Part shown: positions 994-10,363 of the stretch, in pieces | Position numbering within the stretch: position 1 is the first letter of the stretch | Layout: each line of letters opens with the position of its first letter | Origin: Nocardioidaceae bacterium | Lineage (GTDB): Bacteria; Actinomycetota; Actinomycetes; Propionibacteriales; Nocardioidaceae | Reading direction: 5' to 3' | Assembly: GCA_018672315.1 (NCBI GenBank) | Contig: CP076053.1 | Coordinates: 3,335,827-3,399,826, forward strand | DNA: 64,000 bases | The notes under the pieces: model-generated | Databases searched by the model: none | What the model was told of the DNA's origin: nothing | Seen by the model: the letters and a program-made list of their open reading frames with translations, nothing else | Position numbers and translations under genes: made by a program

Positions 994-2697
994 TCACCTC
1001 GTGATCGGCGCGTACGTCAGGAGCAAGCGGGGGCGTACGTCGACGTTGGCGTGCTCGCGGGAGCAGAACCGGAGCGCGTCGCCCCCGTTGTTGCTCACCA
1101 TCAGCGACGTGCGACCGCCGTTCGCGGAGAACGCGGCGGGGTTCAGGTCGATGGCGTAGCGACGCCCGCGGTCGGGCGCCCGGAACGAGCCGATGTCGGC
1201 GATGCCGCGCGGCTGGGTCCGCCAGGTCAGACCGGTCTCCGACCACCCCGCGGCGGTGAGGCGTACGACGTGGGTGTCGACGCTGCCGCCGTCGGTGGAG
1301 CCCTCGGAGCTGATCAGCATCTGGACCCGTGCGAGGCGCGTGCCCGCCGGGGCTGCAGGCAGGTCGAACGCGAGGTAGCTGCGCTCGCGCGGGGAGCCGT
1401 CCGAGCTCAGCGACCAGGCGCCGGCGTGATTGCTGGTGGGGGCGCGCTGACCGACCCAGGCGTCCGCGACGGCGTCGACGGACACCGTGGAGGGCTGCGG
1501 CTCGGGCGTGGGCTCGGGCGTGGGCTCGGGCGTGGGCTCGGGCGTGGGCTCGGGCGTGGGCTCGGGCGTGGGCTCGGGCGTGGGCGAGCCGGCGAGCGTC
1601 GCCACTGCCGTGAGCGCGGGGCGGGGGGAGAAGTCGCGGTTCATCAGACCGTAGCCGTCCTGGTGGATGTCCCCGGAGCCCTTGTCGCGGGAGTTGTACC
1701 AGATGGCCAGCGTGACCTGGGGCCACCGCGAGGCGATGTGCTTCATGCTGCGCACCAGGAAGTCCGCCTGCTGGGCGGCCGTCACGCCGCGGCTCCAGTT
1801 GGGCTGTCCGGGCGCGTTGACGTGCGTCGACCAGCCGAACTCGGTGAAGTAGATCGGCTTGTCGCCGTCCCCGTGCCGGGCCATGAGCCGCACCAGCTCG
1901 TCGGTGTGCCCCATCGTCCACATGGTCCCGTCGTCGGGCACCTCGGGTGCCTGGTCGGCGACCCCCATGTAGGGGTGCACGGCCATGACGTCGAAGTAGC
2001 CGTGGGCGCCGGCGGCGTACGTCTTCGCTATCCAGTCGGTGTCGACGTACATGGGTCCGCCGTAGACGATCGTGACGTCCGGGTCGACGGCGTGGGCTGC
2101 GGTGTACGCCGCCTTGAGCAGCGCCGTGTACTGGACCGGGTCGGCGCCGACGAGGAAGTCGCCGGAGTTCGGCTCGTTCCAGATCTCCCACGCCTCGACC
2201 TTGTCGCCCCACCGGTCGACCAGCCAGGCGAGCGCCTTGCCGTAGTCCGCGGGGTCGGTCGGGGCGACGCGTTCGCCCTTGCCGCCGTTGGCCCAGGAGG
2301 GGGTCAGCCAGAACGTCAGCAGCACCTTCAGACCCCGCGCACGGGCCGCGTCGATCTGCCGCTCGACGAACGGCACGGCCCAGACGGTGTCGAAGCTGTC
2401 CCGCTTCGGCTGCAGCATCGCCCAGCCGACGTCGATGCGGACCCAGCCCGTGCCGTGCGCGGCGAGGGTGTCGACCTCTCGGGTCCGGTCCGAATCGGTC
2501 TGTCCGCTCCAGGTTGCGTGCCACTGGCTCCCGAACTCCAGGCGAGGCGACGGCGCGGTGTCGGCTCGCGCAGAGCCCGCCACACCGGGGAGGAGCGTGG
2601 CGCAGAGCAGCATGACTCCGAGGATGACGGCCAGGTGGGTGGAGCGGCGGGGGAGCGCGGCCTGCTGGGGCACGCCGGGAGCGCGGTCGTGGAACAC
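994..2697 (-). CDS. Secreted clan-A glycoside hydrolase with PTPE linker and DNRLRE-type C-terminal domain
   Basis: A 567-residue secreted glycosidase resembling GH39/GH5-type cellulase-fold enzymes. I start it at the GTG at 2697 because GGAAGG lies about 8 nt upstream. An in-frame ATG at 2763 would add 22 residues with no ribosome site. A signal peptide occupies about residues 17-45. The (beta/alpha)8 domain runs to about 365, with acid/base Glu175 in W-N-E-P-N and nucleophile Glu286 in Y-F-T-E-F-G-W. A (PTPE)n linker follows, then about 160 residues resembling the DNRLRE family found on secreted proteins. The substrate is not evident from sequence. The linker is encoded by perfect 12-bp repeats that could vary in number. 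Confidence 0.85.
   Translation of the reverse strand: MFHDRAPGVPQQAALPRRSTHLAVILGVMLLCATLLPGVAGSARADTAPSPRLEFGSQWHATWSGQTDSDRTREVDTLAAHGTGWVRIDVGWAMLQPKRDSFDTVWAVPFVERQIDAARARGLKVLLTFWLTPSWANGGKGERVAPTDPADYGKALAWLVDRWGDKVEAWEIWNEPNSGDFLVGADPVQYTALLKAAYTAAHAVDPDVTIVYGGPMYVDTDWIAKTYAAGAHGYFDVMAVHPYMGVADQAPEVPDDGTMWTMGHTDELVRLMARHGDGDKPIYFTEFGWSTHVNAPGQPNWSRGVTAAQQADFLVRSMKHIASRWPQVTLAIWYNSRDKGSGDIHQDGYGLMNRDFSPRPALTAVATLAGSPTPEPTPEPTPEPTPEPTPEPTPEPTPEPQPSTVSVDAVADAWVGQRAPTSNHAGAWSLSSDGSPRERSYLAFDLPAAPAGTRLARVQMLISSEGSTDGGSVDTHVVRLTAAGWSETGLTWRTQPRGIADIGSFRAPDRGRRYAIDLNPAAFSANGGRTSLMVSNNGGDALRFCSREHANVDVRPRLLLTYAPITR
1501..1584. repeat. Seven perfect 12-bp tandem repeats encoding the PTPE linker
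   Basis: The 12-mer CTCGGGCGTGGG repeats seven times without mismatch (plus-strand reading). On the coding strand it gives alternating Pro-Thr and Pro-Glu. Unit length is a multiple of three, so copy changes alter linker length but keep the frame. Confidence 0.95.
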
Positions 2698-2989: not shown

Positions 2990-4270
2990 TCAGCCTCGTC
3001 CCTGCGTGAAGGTGATGGTGCCGTCGCGTTCTCGACGATGCTGGTAGCGGCCGTCGTGGATGCGGCGGTGGTGGAACGCGCACAGCGAGACCATGTCGGC
3101 CAGGTCGGTGGTGCCGCCGTGGGACCAGGGTCTGGCGTGGTGCAGCTCGGTCCAGGCGTACGGGGTCTGGCACCCGGTCGCGGCGCAGGTGGTGTGCCGG
3201 GTCGCTCCCGCGAGGCGTTGGGCCTCGGAGAACAGGCGCCGCTGCCGGCCGAGGTCCAGCGGCTGGGACTCCCCACCGAGCACCACGGGCACGAGACCGG
3301 AGCTGCACGCGAGCCGCCGGGTGGTCGCGGCAGAGAGCCGCTCACCGGTGTCGATCCCAGCCGCCTTCACCGCCCCCGCGAGCGTGGTGTGGTCCATCGT
3401 CACCACGAGCGTGGTCGCGGTCTTGCCCGAGAGCCGGTCGGTCGGCAGGTGCTCCAGGAGGTCCGCGAACGCGACCCCCCGCTCGTGCGCCCAGTCCCGA
3501 TCGATGCTCTGACCGCCCCGCGCGTGTGATGCTCCCAGGGCGGCGCGGCGGGGGGCGGTCATCGCGGCCAGGATCTTCCGCAGCACCGACCCCGCCAGGT
3601 GCGGGACGGTGAAGTGACCGGTCACAGTGCCGTCAGCGTTGTCATGCACCGTCAACCGCGCCTTGGCCAGGGCCCGGGTCTCCTCATCGACCAGCTGGGC
3701 GTCCTCGTGGGCGTCGACCACGGCGGGGTCGGGTTCGACGACCTCGAGGACCCGGCGGGCGTGGCGTCGCAGCTGGGTCGGGTCCAGGGTGCGGCTGCGC
3801 TCGACGAGCCGCTGCTCCACGATGGCCTTGTCCTGCGCGGACAGCCCGGCAGGGAGCTGCGCGGTGGCGTGCGCGATCACCGCGGCGTGCTCACGCGAGA
3901 CCAGCCCCGCGTCTAGGGCCTGACTCGTCGCGGGAAGGCGGTCATCGAGGTCGGAGGCCAGACCCACGGTGCGGGCAGCGGCTGCACCGGTGGTGCGGGT
4001 GCGAGCAGCCAACCAGTCACTGGTGGTACGCACCCCCGCATCAGAGGCCACGGTGGTCTTCGCGGCCGCGGCGACCAGCCGCAGCTCGTACGCCTGCAAC
4101 CGCGCCCTCGCCCGAGCGACCTCCGCGATCAACGCGTCACACTCCCGCGATGACAACCCTTCGACCGGACCCGCAGCGTCGAGGGCGTCATGAACCGAGC
4201 TGACCGTCTCCCGAGCACCCCGCTCACGCGACCGCCCAGCGATCGGGGTGGGGTCGAGGAGCGAGGTCAT
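2990..4270 (-). CDS. DUF222 domain HNH endonuclease (13E12 repeat family)
   Basis: A 426-residue protein with the DUF222 region in about residues 30-310 and an HNH nuclease module at the C-terminus. The module has C-x4-C (C-A-A-T-G-C), W-x-E-L-H-H, then L-C-A-F-H-H-R-R-I-H, the expected metal and catalytic residues. The family is common and repeated in actinobacteria and includes the M. tuberculosis REP13E12 genes. The ATG at 4270 has TAGTGT at 4282-4277, 6 nt upstream, fitting a leaderless mRNA. The spacer upstream of that -10 carries a perfect TCGAAC-N4-GTTCGA SOS box, so I infer LexA repression and DNA-damage induction. The gene lies just downstream of tRNA-Leu. Its cellular substrate is unknown. 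Confidence 0.9.
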   Translation of the reverse strand: MTSLLDPTPIAGRSRERGARETVSSVHDALDAAGPVEGLSSRECDALIAEVARARARLQAYELRLVAAAAKTTVASDAGVRTTSDWLAARTRTTGAAAARTVGLASDLDDRLPATSQALDAGLVSREHAAVIAHATAQLPAGLSAQDKAIVEQRLVERSRTLDPTQLRRHARRVLEVVEPDPAVVDAHEDAQLVDEETRALAKARLTVHDNADGTVTGHFTVPHLAGSVLRKILAAMTAPRRAALGASHARGGQSIDRDWAHERGVAFADLLEHLPTDRLSGKTATTLVVTMDHTTLAGAVKAAGIDTGERLSAATTRRLACSSGLVPVVLGGESQPLDLGRQRRLFSEAQRLAGATRHTTCAATGCQTPYAWTELHHARPWSHGGTTDLADMVSLCAFHHRRIHDGRYQHRRERDGTITFTQGRG

Positions 4271-6582: not shown

Positions 6583-7587
6583 TCAGGCCCGGGAGAGCGA
6601 CGTGGGCCCCGCGCCGCCCGGGCTCGCCACCCCGCCGGCGAAGCCGACCGAGACGTCGTCGAGGGCGGAGGCCAGCGCGGGCGGCAACGACAGCTCCTCG
6701 GTGGCGAGAGCCCCGCGGAGCTGGGCGGCCGTGCGTGCCCCCACCAGGGGAGCCGTCACACCGGGGCGGTCGCGGACCCAGCAGAGCGCGACCTCCAGCG
6801 GCGTCCACTCCAGACCGTCGGCGGCCTTGCTGACTGCCTCGACCACCCCGCGGGCACCGGCGCCGAGGTACGGGGCGACGAAGCCCGCGAAGTGGTCGGA
6901 CCCGCCGCGGGAGTCGGCCGGTGTGCCGGTGCGGTACTTGCCGGTGAGCACCCCGCGCCCCAGCGGCGACCACACGAGCGCGCCCATCCCCAGGGAGTCG
7001 GCCGCCGGGAGGACCTCGTGCTCGATGCCGCGGGACAGCAGCGAGTACTCCACCTGGGCCGCCACCAGGGTCGGCGAGGCGTCGCGCAGCTCGCACAGCG
7101 TCGCGGCCCGAGCGGTCTGCCAGCCGTTGTAGTTCGAGACACCCACGTACGCGGCACGGCCGGTCGAGACGGCGGTCTCCAGCGCCGAGAGCGTCTCGGC
7201 CAGCGGCACGTCGTCGGACCAGGTGTGCAGCTGCCACAGGTCGACGCTGTCGACGCCCAGGCGGCGCAGCGACCCGTCGAGCGCGCGCAGCAGGCCGCCG
7301 CGGGAGAGGTCGACCTCGCGTACGCCGCGGCGCCGCCCCAGGCCCGCCTTGGTCGCGACCACGACGTCGTCGCGTGCGACCACGTCGCCGATCAGCGACC
7401 CGAGGAGCTCCTCGGAGGCACCGTCGCCGTAGCCCGCGGCGGTGTCCACGAGCGTGCCGCCGGCCGCGGTGAAGTCGCGCAGCTGCTCGCGCGCCTCGTG
7501 CTCGTCGGTGTCGCGCCCCCACGTCATCGTGCCGAGGCCCAGGCGCGAGACGCGCAGTCCCGAGGCTCCGACGTGGCGCTGCTGCAT
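6583..7587 (-). CDS. Aldo/keto reductase
   Basis: A 334-residue NADPH-dependent oxidoreductase with the TIM-barrel aldo/keto reductase fold, which reduces carbonyls to alcohols. The catalytic tetrad is present: Asp48 and Tyr53 in V-D-T-A-A-G-Y-G-D-G, Lys80 in V-V-A-T-K-A-G, and His121 in W-Q-L-H-T-W. The late S-P-L-G-R-G-V-L-T-G-K-Y block is also typical. The ATG at 7587 is chosen over an upstream candidate at 7632 because TAGCGT (7600-7595) lies 7 nt before it, implying leaderless transcription. It is divergent from uppP, with shared promoter DNA. The substrate cannot be inferred. Confidence 0.88.
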   Translation of the reverse strand: MQQRHVGASGLRVSRLGLGTMTWGRDTDEHEAREQLRDFTAAGGTLVDTAAGYGDGASEELLGSLIGDVVARDDVVVATKAGLGRRRGVREVDLSRGGLLRALDGSLRRLGVDSVDLWQLHTWSDDVPLAETLSALETAVSTGRAAYVGVSNYNGWQTARAATLCELRDASPTLVAAQVEYSLLSRGIEHEVLPAADSLGMGALVWSPLGRGVLTGKYRTGTPADSRGGSDHFAGFVAPYLGAGARGVVEAVSKAADGLEWTPLEVALCWVRDRPGVTAPLVGARTAAQLRGALATEELSLPPALASALDDVSVGFAGGVASPGGAGPTSLSRA

Positions 7588-7594
7588 GAGGCTC

Positions 7595-7600
7595 ACGCTA
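7595..7600 (-). promoter_or_regulatory. -10 element TAGCGT, leaderless aldo/keto reductase
   Basis: Minus-strand TAGCGT is 7 nt before the ATG at 7587. It is 38 bp from the plus-strand -10 of uppP, so the two divergent promoters share their upstream DNA. Confidence 0.65.
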
Positions 7601-7638
7601 CTGCGAGCGTCGGGCCCTGACCGGCAGCCCACGCGCCC

Positions 7639-7644
7639 TACGCT
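7639..7644 (+). promoter_or_regulatory. -10 element TACGCT, leaderless uppP
   Basis: TACGCT is 7 nt before the GTG at 7652. CTGACC at 7617-7622, 16 bp upstream, is a plausible -35. Confidence 0.65.
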
Positions 7645-7651
7645 GACCTGC

Positions 7652-8503
7652 GTGATCGACTACCTGCAGGCCATCGTGCTCGGCACCCTCCAGGGGCTGA
7701 CGGAGTTCCTGCCGATCTCCTCGAGCGCCCACCTGCGCATCTTCCCCGAGCTGTTCGGGTGGGGCGATCCCGGCGCAGCGTTCACCGCGGTGACCCAGAT
7801 CGGCACCGAGGTCGCGGTGCTGCTCTACTTCCGCAAGGACATCTGGAACATCGCGACCACCTGGACGCAGTCGCTGTGGAAGCCCGAGCTGCGCGGCGAC
7901 CTGAATGCGCGCATGGGGTGGTACGTCATCATCGGGTCCCTCCCCATCGTGATCCTGGGGCTGCTGCTGCAGGACGTCATCCGCGACCAGTTCCGCTCGC
8001 TGTGGATCGTCGGCACCACCCTGATCGTCTTCGGCATCGTGCTCGGCATCGCCGACCGGGTCGGGTCGACGGAGAAGACCGCGAAGGACCTCACCTGGCG
8101 CCACGCGGTGCTCTACGGCCTCGCGCAGGCCGCGGCGCTCGTGCCCGGCGTCTCACGCTCGGGCGGCACCATCTCGATGGGACGGTTCCTCGGGTACGAC
8201 CGTGCGGCCGCCACGCGCTTCGCCTTCCTGCTCGCCATCCCGGCCGTCATCGGCGCCGGTGTCTTCGAGCTCAAGTCCGTGCTCGAGTGCAACGCGGGGT
8301 CGGCCGCGGAGGAGTGCGTCAACGCGTACACGAACGGCCAGACGCTCGCCGCGACGGTCGTGGCCTTCGCCGTGGGCTACGTCGTCATCGCCGCCCTGCT
8401 GCGCTACCTGCAGAGCAACACCTTCTCGCCCTTCGTGATCTACCGGATCATCCTCGGTTCGGGCGTGCTCGTGCTGCTCTCGGCGGGCGTTTTGGCCGCC
8501 TGA
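7652..8503 (+). CDS. uppP: Undecaprenyl-diphosphatase UppP (BacA)
   Basis: A 283-residue polytopic membrane enzyme that dephosphorylates undecaprenyl diphosphate, recycling the lipid carrier for peptidoglycan and other envelope polymers. It also lowers bacitracin sensitivity. The N-terminal active-site motif G-L-T-E18-F-L-P-I-S-S-S-A-H27 and the second motif P-G-V-S-R-S-G-G-T-I are intact, with several hydrophobic helices between. The GTG at 7652 is chosen because Met-Ile-Asp-Tyr-Leu-Gln-Ala-Ile is the usual family N-terminus and because of the -10 7 nt upstream. It ends about 65 bp before a 20-bp perfect hairpin that also closes the convergent symporter gene. Confidence 0.95.
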   Translation: MIDYLQAIVLGTLQGLTEFLPISSSAHLRIFPELFGWGDPGAAFTAVTQIGTEVAVLLYFRKDIWNIATTWTQSLWKPELRGDLNARMGWYVIIGSLPIVILGLLLQDVIRDQFRSLWIVGTTLIVFGIVLGIADRVGSTEKTAKDLTWRHAVLYGLAQAAALVPGVSRSGGTISMGRFLGYDRAAATRFAFLLAIPAVIGAGVFELKSVLECNAGSAAEECVNAYTNGQTLAATVVAFAVGYVVIAALLRYLQSNTFSPFVIYRIILGSGVLVLLSAGVLAA

Positions 8504-8518
8504 CCCCCCCCGTACGCC

Positions 8519-8569
8519 GAGAGGTCACTTCCCGCGAGAGGTCACTTCCCGCGAGAGGTCACTTCCCGC
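8519..8569. repeat. Three perfect 17-bp tandem repeats between uppP and the symporter gene
   Basis: GAGAGGTCACTTCCCGC is repeated head to tail at 8519-8535, 8536-8552 and 8553-8569. A fourth copy begins (GAGAGGTC) and runs into the adjacent hairpin, so repeat and hairpin share a core. The whole array is intergenic. Confidence 0.95.
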
Positions 8570-8617
8570 GAGAGGTCGATTGTCGCGGCTTTACGGTCGC
8601 GACAATCGACCTCTCGC
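8568..8617. terminator. 20-bp perfect hairpin, bidirectional terminator or repeat element
   Basis: Arms at 8568-8587 and 8598-8617 are perfect reverse complements and enclose a 10-nt loop. It lies between the 3' ends of convergent uppP and the SSS symporter gene, which ends 7 bp away, so it can stop transcription from both sides. The arm contains the GCGAGAGGTC core of the neighbouring 17-bp repeats. Confidence 0.8.
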
Positions 8618-8623
8618 CGGGGG

Positions 8624-10363
8624 TCAGGCGTACGCCCAGACGAGGCCGGCGGTGCACAGCAGCAGGATCACGCTGAGCACCCGGTAGTTCGCCCAGACCG
8701 GCACCGACTGCTCCTTCAGCCGCGTCGTCTCCTCGGTCCAGTAGCGGTTGTCCCAGGTGAGCTCACCGGTCTTCTCGGTGTCCGGCGTCTCTCCCAGCGC
8801 GCTGATGAGGAACAACAGCAGGACCGACAACGTCAGACTCATGCCCGCGACGTAGAGGAACTGCAGGGGGATGTCGAAGGTCGAGAACTCGATCAGCCCC
8901 GACGGGTAGGGCACCGGCAGCGTCTCGAAGACGCCCATCACCTCGATGAGCACGAACGTGAGAGCCCCGAGCGGCTGCATGATCACCAGCGTGCTGAACG
9001 CCGCGGTCGCGTTGATGCGCTTGACCGCGATGCCGAGCAGGAACACGGCCACCACGGGCGGCACCAGGTAGGACAGCACCGACTGCAGGTAGCCGTACAA
9101 CGTGTCGAACTGCGCGATCGTCGGCGCCCACACCACCGCGACCACCAGGGCGCCCACCGTGGAGAGCTGTCCCACGCGGACGAGCTGCTGCTGGCTGATG
9201 TCGGGCTTCACCGGCTTGACGAAGTCCATCGTGACGATGGTGGAGGCGGAGTTGAGGATCGAGTCCACCGTCGAGGTGATCGCCGCGATGACCGCGGCGA
9301 GGATCAGCCCTCGCAACCCCACCGGCAGCAGGTCGAAGACGAGCGTCGGGAAGACCGTGTCGGGGTTCTGCAGGTTCGGGTAGAGCACCAGCGCCATCAC
9401 GCCGGGGAAGATGAACAGGAACAGGAACGCGAGCTTGATGAAGCCGGCCAGCAAGGAGCCCCACCGGCCGTGGTCCAGGCTCTTCGCCCCGAGGCTGCGC
9501 TGCACGACGAGCTGGTTGGTCGTCCAGTAGTAGAGCCCGATCACGATGACGCCGGTGATCAGCCCGGGCCACGGGAGGTCGGGGTCGCCGGGCGGCAGGA
9601 TCAGGCTCATCCGTCGGTCGCCGGCGGCCTCGCGCACGTTCTCGAACGACCCGACGGCCTCGAGGGTGAAGAAGAAGACCAGCGCGCCGCCGACAATCGT
9701 GATGGTCGCCTGGATCGAGTCGGAGATCATGACCGCGCCGAGACCGCCGATGACCGTGTAGACGGCGGCCAGCAGGGCCAGCGCGGCGATCGACACCCAG
9801 ATCGGCACCTGCGGGTAGATCGCCTTGATGAGGATCGCGCCGGCATAGAGCGCCGCCGCCATGTCGATGAACATGTTGGCGAAGAGGTTGAAGCCGGCGA
9901 ATGCCTTGCGGGAGCGGTGGTCGAAGCGGTTCTCGAGGAACTCCGGCAGCGTGAAGACCTTGCTGCGCAGGTAGAAGGGCAGGATGAAGAAGATGAAGAT
10001 GACGAGGATGACCGCGCTCATCCACTCGTAGGCGAAGATCGAGATGCCCTGGTCGTACGCCCCGCCGGCCAGGCCGACGAACGTCGCACCGCTCATGTTG
10101 GTCGCCACCAGCGACAGGCCGACGAACGGCCACAGGAAGTTGCGGCCGCCGAGGAAGTACTGCTCGGACTCGTCGCCGCCCTCCTCCTTGTTCTTCTTCG
10201 AGGCCCGCTGGGAGAACACGAGCGGGATGATGCGGCTGAGGATGAGGTAGCCGATGATCACCGACAGGTCGATCCAGCCGACGGCGAAGTTGGGGGCACC
10301 ACCGCCCCCGCCGCCCTCGGCGGCGAGCAGGACCTCGTCCGTGGTGGCGTTCAGCAGCCTCAT
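8624..10363 (-). CDS. SSS family sodium:solute symporter
   Basis: A 579-residue inner-membrane transporter of the solute:sodium symporter family, closest in look to SGLT-type sugar carriers. It has about 14 hydrophobic segments. Family features include the N-terminal Y-F-L-G-G-R-N-F-L-W-P block after the first helix, L-V-A-T-N-M-S-G-A-T-F, and the sodium-site region A-A-I-T-S-T-V-D-S-I-L-N-S-A-S-T. The ATG at 10363 follows GGAGGG and overlaps the uspA stop (TGATG), so the two genes are co-translated; the 10396 start would add 11 non-homologous residues. A poly-glycine run follows the N-terminus. The transported solute (sugar, myo-inositol or other) is not evident. Confidence 0.88.
   Translation of the reverse strand: MRLLNATTDEVLLAAEGGGGGGAPNFAVGWIDLSVIIGYLILSRIIPLVFSQRASKKNKEEGGDESEQYFLGGRNFLWPFVGLSLVATNMSGATFVGLAGGAYDQGISIFAYEWMSAVILVIFIFFILPFYLRSKVFTLPEFLENRFDHRSRKAFAGFNLFANMFIDMAAALYAGAILIKAIYPQVPIWVSIAALALLAAVYTVIGGLGAVMISDSIQATITIVGGALVFFFTLEAVGSFENVREAAGDRRMSLILPPGDPDLPWPGLITGVIVIGLYYWTTNQLVVQRSLGAKSLDHGRWGSLLAGFIKLAFLFLFIFPGVMALVLYPNLQNPDTVFPTLVFDLLPVGLRGLILAAVIAAITSTVDSILNSASTIVTMDFVKPVKPDISQQQLVRVGQLSTVGALVVAVVWAPTIAQFDTLYGYLQSVLSYLVPPVVAVFLLGIAVKRINATAAFSTLVIMQPLGALTFVLIEVMGVFETLPVPYPSGLIEFSTFDIPLQFLYVAGMSLTLSVLLLFLISALGETPDTEKTGELTWDNRYWTEETTRLKEQSVPVWANYRVLSVILLLCTAGLVWAYA

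What the first reader, a model, noticed from the sequence alone, without database searches (positions are those of the whole stretch)
8519..8617. 17-bp tandem repeats merging into a 20-bp perfect hairpin
Three exact copies of GAGAGGTCACTTCCCGC run into a hairpin whose arm starts GCGAGAGGTC, the repeat core. A perfect 20-bp stem is far more than a terminator needs. It looks like a REP/BIME-like or miniature mobile unit that has taken over the uppP/symporter terminator.
Basis: partly seen in the sequence, partly recalled or inferred. Interest (0 to 1): 0.55.

Follow-up and report, generated by a model that had tools for sequence, protein, structure and literature searches.

The report
Dispersed tandem hairpin repeats behind stop codons
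A short repeat between two genes turns out to be one of about 25 similar clusters scattered through this bacterium's genome, most of which start just after a gene's stop signal and point the same way as the gene, so it looks like a gene-end repeat family whose means of spreading is not known.

Summary
In detail: 3.5 exact 17-bp repeats run into a perfect 20-bp hairpin between convergent uppP and a symporter gene. It is not a one-off terminator. The unit GAGRGGTCACTTCYCG occurs 60 times in the 3.6-Mb genome, reversed control 0; I read 25 loci. In four Nocardioidaceae genomes (periods 17, 22, 22, 21 bp) arrays lie in sense within 15 nt after a stop codon in 23/31, 22/44, 21/23 and 10/17 tested cases, against 6.6, 5.3, 7.3 and 2.8 expected; facing arrays are > < in 39 of 39. 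There is no T-tail, and of 26 readable uppP ends only the own genome's carries units. Against my reading: G004 folds better on the antisense strand, and pairing is not kept by compensating changes. Best reading: a RAYT-less, REP-like family acting at mRNA 3' ends, duplicated locally, dispersed by an unknown route. Mycobacterial MIRUs are a second close comparison. New variant of a known kind.

The parts
7652..8503 (+). uppP/BacA gene, stop TGA 8501-8503
   Evidence: codon-model gene call; Pfam BacA 5e-84
8497..8508 (+). left arm of outer 12-bp perfect inverted repeat, contains the uppP stop codon
8518..8534 (+). sense unit 1, 14 nt after the uppP stop
8535..8551 (+). sense unit 2 (exact copy)
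8552..8568 (+). sense unit 3 (exact copy)
8568..8587 (+). variant unit = left arm of the perfect 20-bp stem
   Evidence: variant core only in these two arms among the 25 site loci
8588..8597 (.). 10-nt loop between the arms
8598..8617 (-). inverted variant unit = right arm of the stem; sense orientation for the symporter gene, its unit core 7 nt from that gene's stop
8619..8630 (-). right arm of outer 12-bp inverted repeat, contains the symporter stop codon (TCA 8624-8626)
8624..10363 (-). sodium:solute symporter family gene, convergent to uppP
   Evidence: gene call; Pfam SSF 3.9e-71

Best explanation
This is one site of a dispersed, REP/BIME-like repeat family of Nocardioidaceae that works without a recognisable RAYT. 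The element is a short imperfect palindrome (core GAGRGGTCANTTC) repeated head to tail. Arrays mostly begin a few nucleotides after a stop codon and read in the same direction as that gene; where two genes converge, two arrays can face each other (> > > < < <). SHOWN: dispersal, head-to-tail repetition, the stop-codon and orientation bias, the > < order of neighbouring arrays, patchy copy number in the family, no PF01797 match. INFERRED: the arrays are transcribed with the upstream gene and act at the mRNA 3' end. At this site the facing units would form a 20-bp, T-less hairpin in both transcripts, most likely a bidirectional terminator or 3'-end stabiliser for uppP and the symporter. Also inferred: copies multiply locally by tandem duplication and spread between genes by gene conversion or an unidentified transposition route.
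For: 60 exact units in the genome, reversed control 0; 122 at up to 2 mismatches, control 2. In sense within 15 nt after a stop codon: 23/31, 22/44, 21/23, 10/17 tested arrays in four genomes against 6.6, 5.3, 7.3, 2.8 expected; 0, 0, 0 and 1 of 20,000 simulations as high. Commonest stop-to-unit gap in the own genome is 3 nt, 9 of the 26 sense arrays. Facing arrays are + then - in 39 of 39. Units within an array are a little more alike than between arrays (0.865 v 0.825; 0.896 v 0.852; 0.809 v 0.803; 0.863 v 0.821; no significance test). Perfect stems of 18-20 bp occur at 4 of 14 unit-bearing convergent junctions and at 0 of 9 without units, where the longest is 9. In a shared gene neighbourhood G004 has its array at another junction, not behind uppP. 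The sense strand folds better than the antisense in three of four genomes. Clusters of U-less hairpins close to stop codons are described as bacterial intrinsic terminators (PMC8355165, passages read).
Against: No expression or termination data. In G004 the sense strand folds better in only 3 of 43 arrays. Not behind a same-strand stop: 16 of 45 G004 arrays, 5 of 31 own-genome arrays and 3 of 20 N. albus arrays outside called genes (gene calls use a codon model trained on the window). Changes inside the unit are not compensatory: position 3 is A in 133 of 134 units while its partner 15 is C in 73, so the single hairpin is not what is conserved. Counting weak units, reverse (- +) neighbours occur, 5 in G000 and 1 in G004. 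Facing arms do not in general match each other more than arms of other sites. No consensus terminator here.
Confidence: 0.55

Rival explanations
1. A selfish miniature element mobilised in trans by an enzyme not yet recognised, which inserts near stop codons (or survives best there); any effect on transcripts is a by-product.
For: Patchy high copy number among family genomes at up to 2 mismatches: 122, 74, 66, 56, then 33, 33, 32, 26, 26, 16, a few of 10-14, and mostly 0-5 elsewhere. Arrays at different junctions in some shared neighbourhoods. Outer ends of facing arrays in G004 look like inverted termini (by eye).
Against: No PF01797 match in 20 genomes; other transposase families were not searched. 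The sense bias is not expected of free insertion. No target duplication or empty site was shown. The two-unit pattern had no hit in viral contigs.
Confidence: 0.2
2. A DNA-level binding array for a nucleoid protein, gyrase or regulator; gene ends are merely the tolerated places.
For: The sequence, not its pairing, is conserved; folding on the sense strand is not favoured in G004.
Against: A tie between orientation and the gene read is not needed for DNA binding. The adjoining genes that were scanned look unrelated in function (no enrichment test).
Confidence: 0.12
3. A stop-codon-proximal hairpin that stalls the terminating ribosome, as reported for E. coli REPs within 15 nt of a stop codon.
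For: Most own-genome sense arrays start within 15 nt of the stop, the limit quoted in PMC12306157 (passages read).
Against: Arrays of several units extend well beyond 15 nt; the folded 19-nt form of the window's own unit is weak (-5.2 kcal/mol).
Confidence: 0.08
4. An ordinary single intrinsic terminator of uppP.
For: It lies in a convergent junction and folds strongly.
Against: Dispersed in many copies; no T-run; no units at the other 25 readable uppP 3' ends.
Confidence: 0.05

Closest known systems
REP / BIME / REPIN elements with RAYT (GTAG-tagged REPs)
   Same: Short imperfect palindromes, dispersed, intergenic, predominantly downstream of genes, units in opposite orientation side by side, uneven among relatives; GTAG REPs often supply a stop codon (PMC3733652, passages read), as the first unit's TGA does at 4 genes in N. 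nematodiphilus.
   Different: No PF01797 match in 20 genomes; no constant GTAG/CGTC tag seen. [quoted passage not shown] Orientation is tied to the gene read. 'actino' occurs 0 times in that paper's main text.
CGTC-tagged REPs
   Same: Dispersed palindromes that 'apparently lack a dedicated transposase' (PMC3733652, abstract and passages).
   Different: Mostly head-head dimers with 8-9 bp stems and a terminal CGTC; phyla named in the passages read do not include Actinomycetota.
Mycobacterial interspersed repetitive units (MIRU)
   Same: [quoted passage not shown] tuberculosis chromosome, 12 of them variable in copy number (PMC3914561 and PMC2734929, passages read). I recall, from no call, that MIRUs follow the direction of the adjoining genes and sit at overlapping stop/start codons.
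   Different: Units of 46-101 bp against 17-22 bp here. That MIRUs lie between genes of operons and are not built as facing palindromes is recalled, not checked.
Hairpin-cluster intrinsic terminators without U-tract
   Same: Close to the stop codon, several hairpins in tandem, no U-tract needed (PMC8355165, passages read).
   Different: Defined by structure; that paper found no sequence conservation within 25 bases of the stop codon, whereas here one sequence recurs genome-wide.
E. coli REPs within 15 nt of a stop codon; RepRanger REP predictions
   Same: Placement within 15 nt of a stop codon; RepRanger's table also lists predicted REPs in three Actinomycetota species (PMC12306157, passages read).
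   Different: There 446 of 4,072 predicted E. coli REPs (~11%) lie that close; here 23 of 31 tested arrays, in sense. RepRanger predicts from palindromes alone. No translation data here.

Membership tests
REP/BIME (broad sense: dispersed extragenic palindromes) | Short palindromic unit in many intergenic copies | tested here: met
   60 exact units, control 0; 2 of 33 own-genome arrays fall inside called genes
REP/BIME (broad sense: dispersed extragenic palindromes) | Units clustered in both orientations | tested here: met
   39 facing pairs of arrays in four genomes, all + then -; pairs with a single imperfect unit as one arm, such as the window's own, are not in that count
REP/BIME with RAYT (strict sense) | Cognate Y1/HUH RAYT transposase in the genome | tested here: not met
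   PF01797: 0 of 1, 0 of 20 genomes including the own and nine relatives with raised unit counts; the same search rings in 5 of 14 control genomes
REP/BIME with RAYT (strict sense) | Unpaired GTAG or CGTC tag at one end of the palindrome | tested here: inconclusive
   Judged by eye only: no constant GTAG in the printed arrays; CGTC appears where the gap reads GGCGTCA but is not constant
Canonical intrinsic terminator | GC-rich stem followed by a T-run | tested here: not met
   0 sites in 8400-8750
Hairpin-cluster (U-less) terminator | Tandem hairpins shortly after the stop codon | tested here: met
   fold of 8500-8630; placement
Hairpin-cluster (U-less) terminator | Transcripts end there | not testable with these tools
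   no RNA data
MITE / miniature transposon | Target-site duplication, empty sites | not tested
   one genome per species held; relatives too far apart for intergenic alignment
MIRU | 46-101 bp tandem units at scattered loci | tested here: not met
   periods 17, 22, 22, 21 bp; MIRU size
Known Rfam RNA | Match at gathering score | tested here: not met
   7500-9500: only sub-threshold microRNA-precursor matches to the hairpin

The most novel reading that the evidence does not exclude
A gene-end-anchored repeat system in actinobacteria, separate from RAYT-driven REPs, whose tandem units are copied into the few nucleotides after stop codons (sometimes supplying the stop codon) in the direction of transcription, implying a dispersal or selection mechanism that recognises gene ends or the transcript itself.
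Probability: 0.2. Interest if true: 0.75.

Novelty: new variant of a known kind. Interest (0 to 1): 0.45.

Why it matters
RAYT-driven spread is the standing hypothesis for GTAG REPs, and CGTC REPs lack a known mover (PMC3733652). Here a REP-like element is amplified in a family where no Y1 transposase match was found in any of 20 genomes, with a strong tie to stop codons and reading direction. That makes it testable, in named Nocardioides species, how such repeats spread and whether they are kept as gene-end signals.

Tried and rejected
RAYT association: no match. Phage origin: the two-unit pattern had 0 hits in viral contigs. Known RNA family: none at gathering score. Single hairpin conserved by compensating change: not supported. 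Sense-strand folding as a universal property: fails in G004. Mutual correction of the two facing arms: no general signal (same-site v other-site identity 12.11 v 11.93, 13.30 v 13.77, 13.89 v 13.53, 13.10 v 13.46 of 17), though the window site is identical in both arms. Functional bias of adjoining genes: 20 proteins were scanned (including the two window genes), 18 had a family match, and they look unrelated (Era, malate dehydrogenase, GatB, carbonic anhydrase, ThrE and others); no enrichment test was run. Class-wide spread of the exact core: 10 of 393 other genomes have one copy each, against 5 control hits by my count of the rows. A motif in g159 genomes (GGTACTRCGWWGTGC; 33, 8, 35, 43 hits v controls of at most 2): most of the copies that could be placed fell inside called genes, so it was not used as an analogue. 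Literature: the 13-letter string gagaggtcacttc is in no paper of the held library; two joint searches for Nocardioides or Actinobacteria with such repeats gave 0 papers; three wider listings (16 of 16 seen, 15 of 247, 15 of 27) showed no title or abstract start on such repeats in Nocardioidaceae, though one search lists a paper on M. tuberculosis tandem repeats. That covers only those searches.

Full report
CHECK. The sequence is as described: 3.5 perfect 17-bp copies at 8518-8577, merging into a perfect 20-bp stem, arms 8568-8587 and 8598-8617, loop 10 nt. The stretch 8500-8630 folds far better than its shuffles (z = -8.65, 0 of 200). It fills the gap between uppP/BacA (stop at 8501-8503) and a convergent sodium:solute symporter gene (stop at 8624-8626). 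An outer 12-bp inverted repeat embraces both stop codons.

DISPERSAL. In the own genome (G000, 3.6 Mb, one contig) GAGAGGTCACTTC occurs 27 times exactly (control 0), GAGRGGTCACTTCYCG 60 times (37 + / 23 -; control 0), and CGAGRGGTCACTTCYCG with up to two mismatches 122 times (control 2). A DNA search with the window stretch gives 34 places. I read 25 loci, 24 fetched plus the window's own; each holds seed units. Together they hold 143 units, 89 distinct as 21-mers.

PLACEMENT. With a codon-model gene caller trained on the window (54 genes, 94% of the window), 33 arrays were defined in G000 (two or more units, or one unit without mismatch; the window's single inverted unit, with one mismatch, is therefore not among them). 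Two lie inside called genes; 26 of the other 31 stand behind a same-strand stop codon, and nine of those start exactly 3 nt after it. The two largest gaps listed there (650, 1654) come from a weak end unit that overlaps the neighbouring gene; the stops themselves adjoin the arrays. The base after the stop is C in 79% of 28 gene ends flagged as unit-bearing v 38% of 165 others (two of the 28 look like chance matches of a loose pattern). Exceptions: L115, L119, L128 (minus array), L130 and L135 outside genes; L120 and L132 inside a called gene.

OTHER GENOMES. A genome-collection scan for two adjacent units gave 8 stretches from three species, Nocardioides nematodiphilus, N. albus and Sinomonas cellulolyticus (the window's own genome may be left out there); Sinomonas is Micrococcaceae, Nocardioides is Nocardioidaceae. 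That the own genome is Nocardioidaceae is inferred from N. albus (G249) being listed in its family. In the family, 5 of 294 genomes hold the exact unit; at up to two mismatches the counts in 288 genomes are patchy: 122 (own), 74, 66, 56, 33, 33, 32, 26, 26, 16, a few of 10-14, mostly 0-5 elsewhere, near their controls. Across 394 genomes of the class 10 others have one copy each, against 5 control hits. I fetched 23 regions of G004, 17 of G218 and 18 of G249. Their periods are 22, 22 and 21 bp. Same-strand stop behind the array: 29 of 45, 24 of 24, 17 of 20 outside genes. Against uniform placement and random orientation in each array's own gap, arrays in sense within 15 nt of a stop number 23/31, 22/44, 21/23 and 10/17 (expected 6.6, 5.3, 7.3, 2.8; 0, 0, 0 and 1 of 20,000 simulations as high). 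Left out of that test were 2 of 33, 1 of 45, 1 of 24 and 6 of 23 arrays, for want of a good unit or of two flanking gene calls, or because they lay in a called gene. Neighbouring opposed arrays are + then - in 6, 19, 6 and 8 cases and never the reverse; if weak single units are counted, + - neighbours number 9, 20, 9 and 10 and reverse ones 5 (G000) and 1 (G004). In G218 six of 24 gaps are -3, and at four genes the stop TGA is plainly the start of the first unit.

TURNOVER. Of 26 readable uppP 3' ends (30 examined) only the own genome's has units behind it. In the neighbourhood shared with G004 the array sits at another junction, whereas era carries arrays in both G000 and G218, and two further genes do in both G004 and G218. 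So some sites are shared and others are not.

STRUCTURE. The sense strand of arrays of two or more units folds better than the antisense in G000 (23 of 30), G218 (19 of 21) and G249 (18 of 23), but in only 3 of 43 in G004. Within units changes are not compensatory. Long perfect stems (18, 18, 19, 20) occur at 4 of 14 unit-bearing convergent junctions; the 9 without units reach at most 9. The hairpin has no T-tail. The variant core in the window's two arms was found nowhere else in the 25 site loci read, which fits one arm having been copied from the other here, but facing arms are not in general more alike than chance pairs.

MOBILITY. No PF01797 match in G000 or in any of 20 Nocardioidaceae genomes. 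No viral hit for the two-unit pattern. Other transposase families were not searched. Dispersal is therefore shown by distribution only; the route is unknown.

COMPARISON. GTAG and CGTC REPs (PMC3733652; outline and passages) share dispersal, location downstream of genes, paired opposite units and stop-codon overlap. They differ in tag, in the rarity of head-tail repeats, and (GTAG) in having RAYTs. RepRanger (PMC12306157; passages) quotes the 15-nt stop-codon rule for E. coli REPs and lists predicted REPs in three Actinomycetota species, so palindromes of this broad sort are not new to the phylum. MIRUs of M. tuberculosis (PMC3914561, PMC2734929; [quoted passage not shown] their gene-direction and stop-codon tie is recalled, from no call. 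PMC8355165 (passages) describes U-less hairpin clusters near stop codons as terminators. What the family works like: REP and hairpin-cluster terminator. Membership of RAYT-REPs: not met.

VERDICT. I rate it a new variant of a known kind.

Noticed in passing
L136, near the array at 3466-3499 (seen as L050): A sister array on the opposite strand with a different unit of about 21 bp (TGACGCCGAGAGGGCAGGAAA) whose repeat includes the TGA stop codon, facing a standard array across a perfect palindrome; read by eye.
   Followed up: partly
window 1499-1585: 7.2 perfect copies of a 12-bp tandem repeat GGCTCGGGCGTG.
   Followed up: no
L107, L109 (Sinomonas cellulolyticus): Arrays of very similar units at 19-bp spacing in a different order (Micrococcales), suggesting transfer or an older origin.
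   Followed up: partly
genomes G652, G654, G656, G659 (g159): A separate over-represented motif GGTACTRCGWWGTGC (33, 8, 35, 43 hits, controls at most 2), tandem behind uppP in L313/L317 but mostly inside called genes elsewhere.
   Followed up: partly
G154, G127 (g20): Units CGACGGGGCACTTCCCG and TGACGGGTCACTTCCCG at 22-bp spacing in the hit list; the sequence seems to drift between genera.
   Followed up: no
L116 4638-5564 and L255 3117-4121: The era gene carries arrays at its 3' end in two genera.
   Followed up: partly
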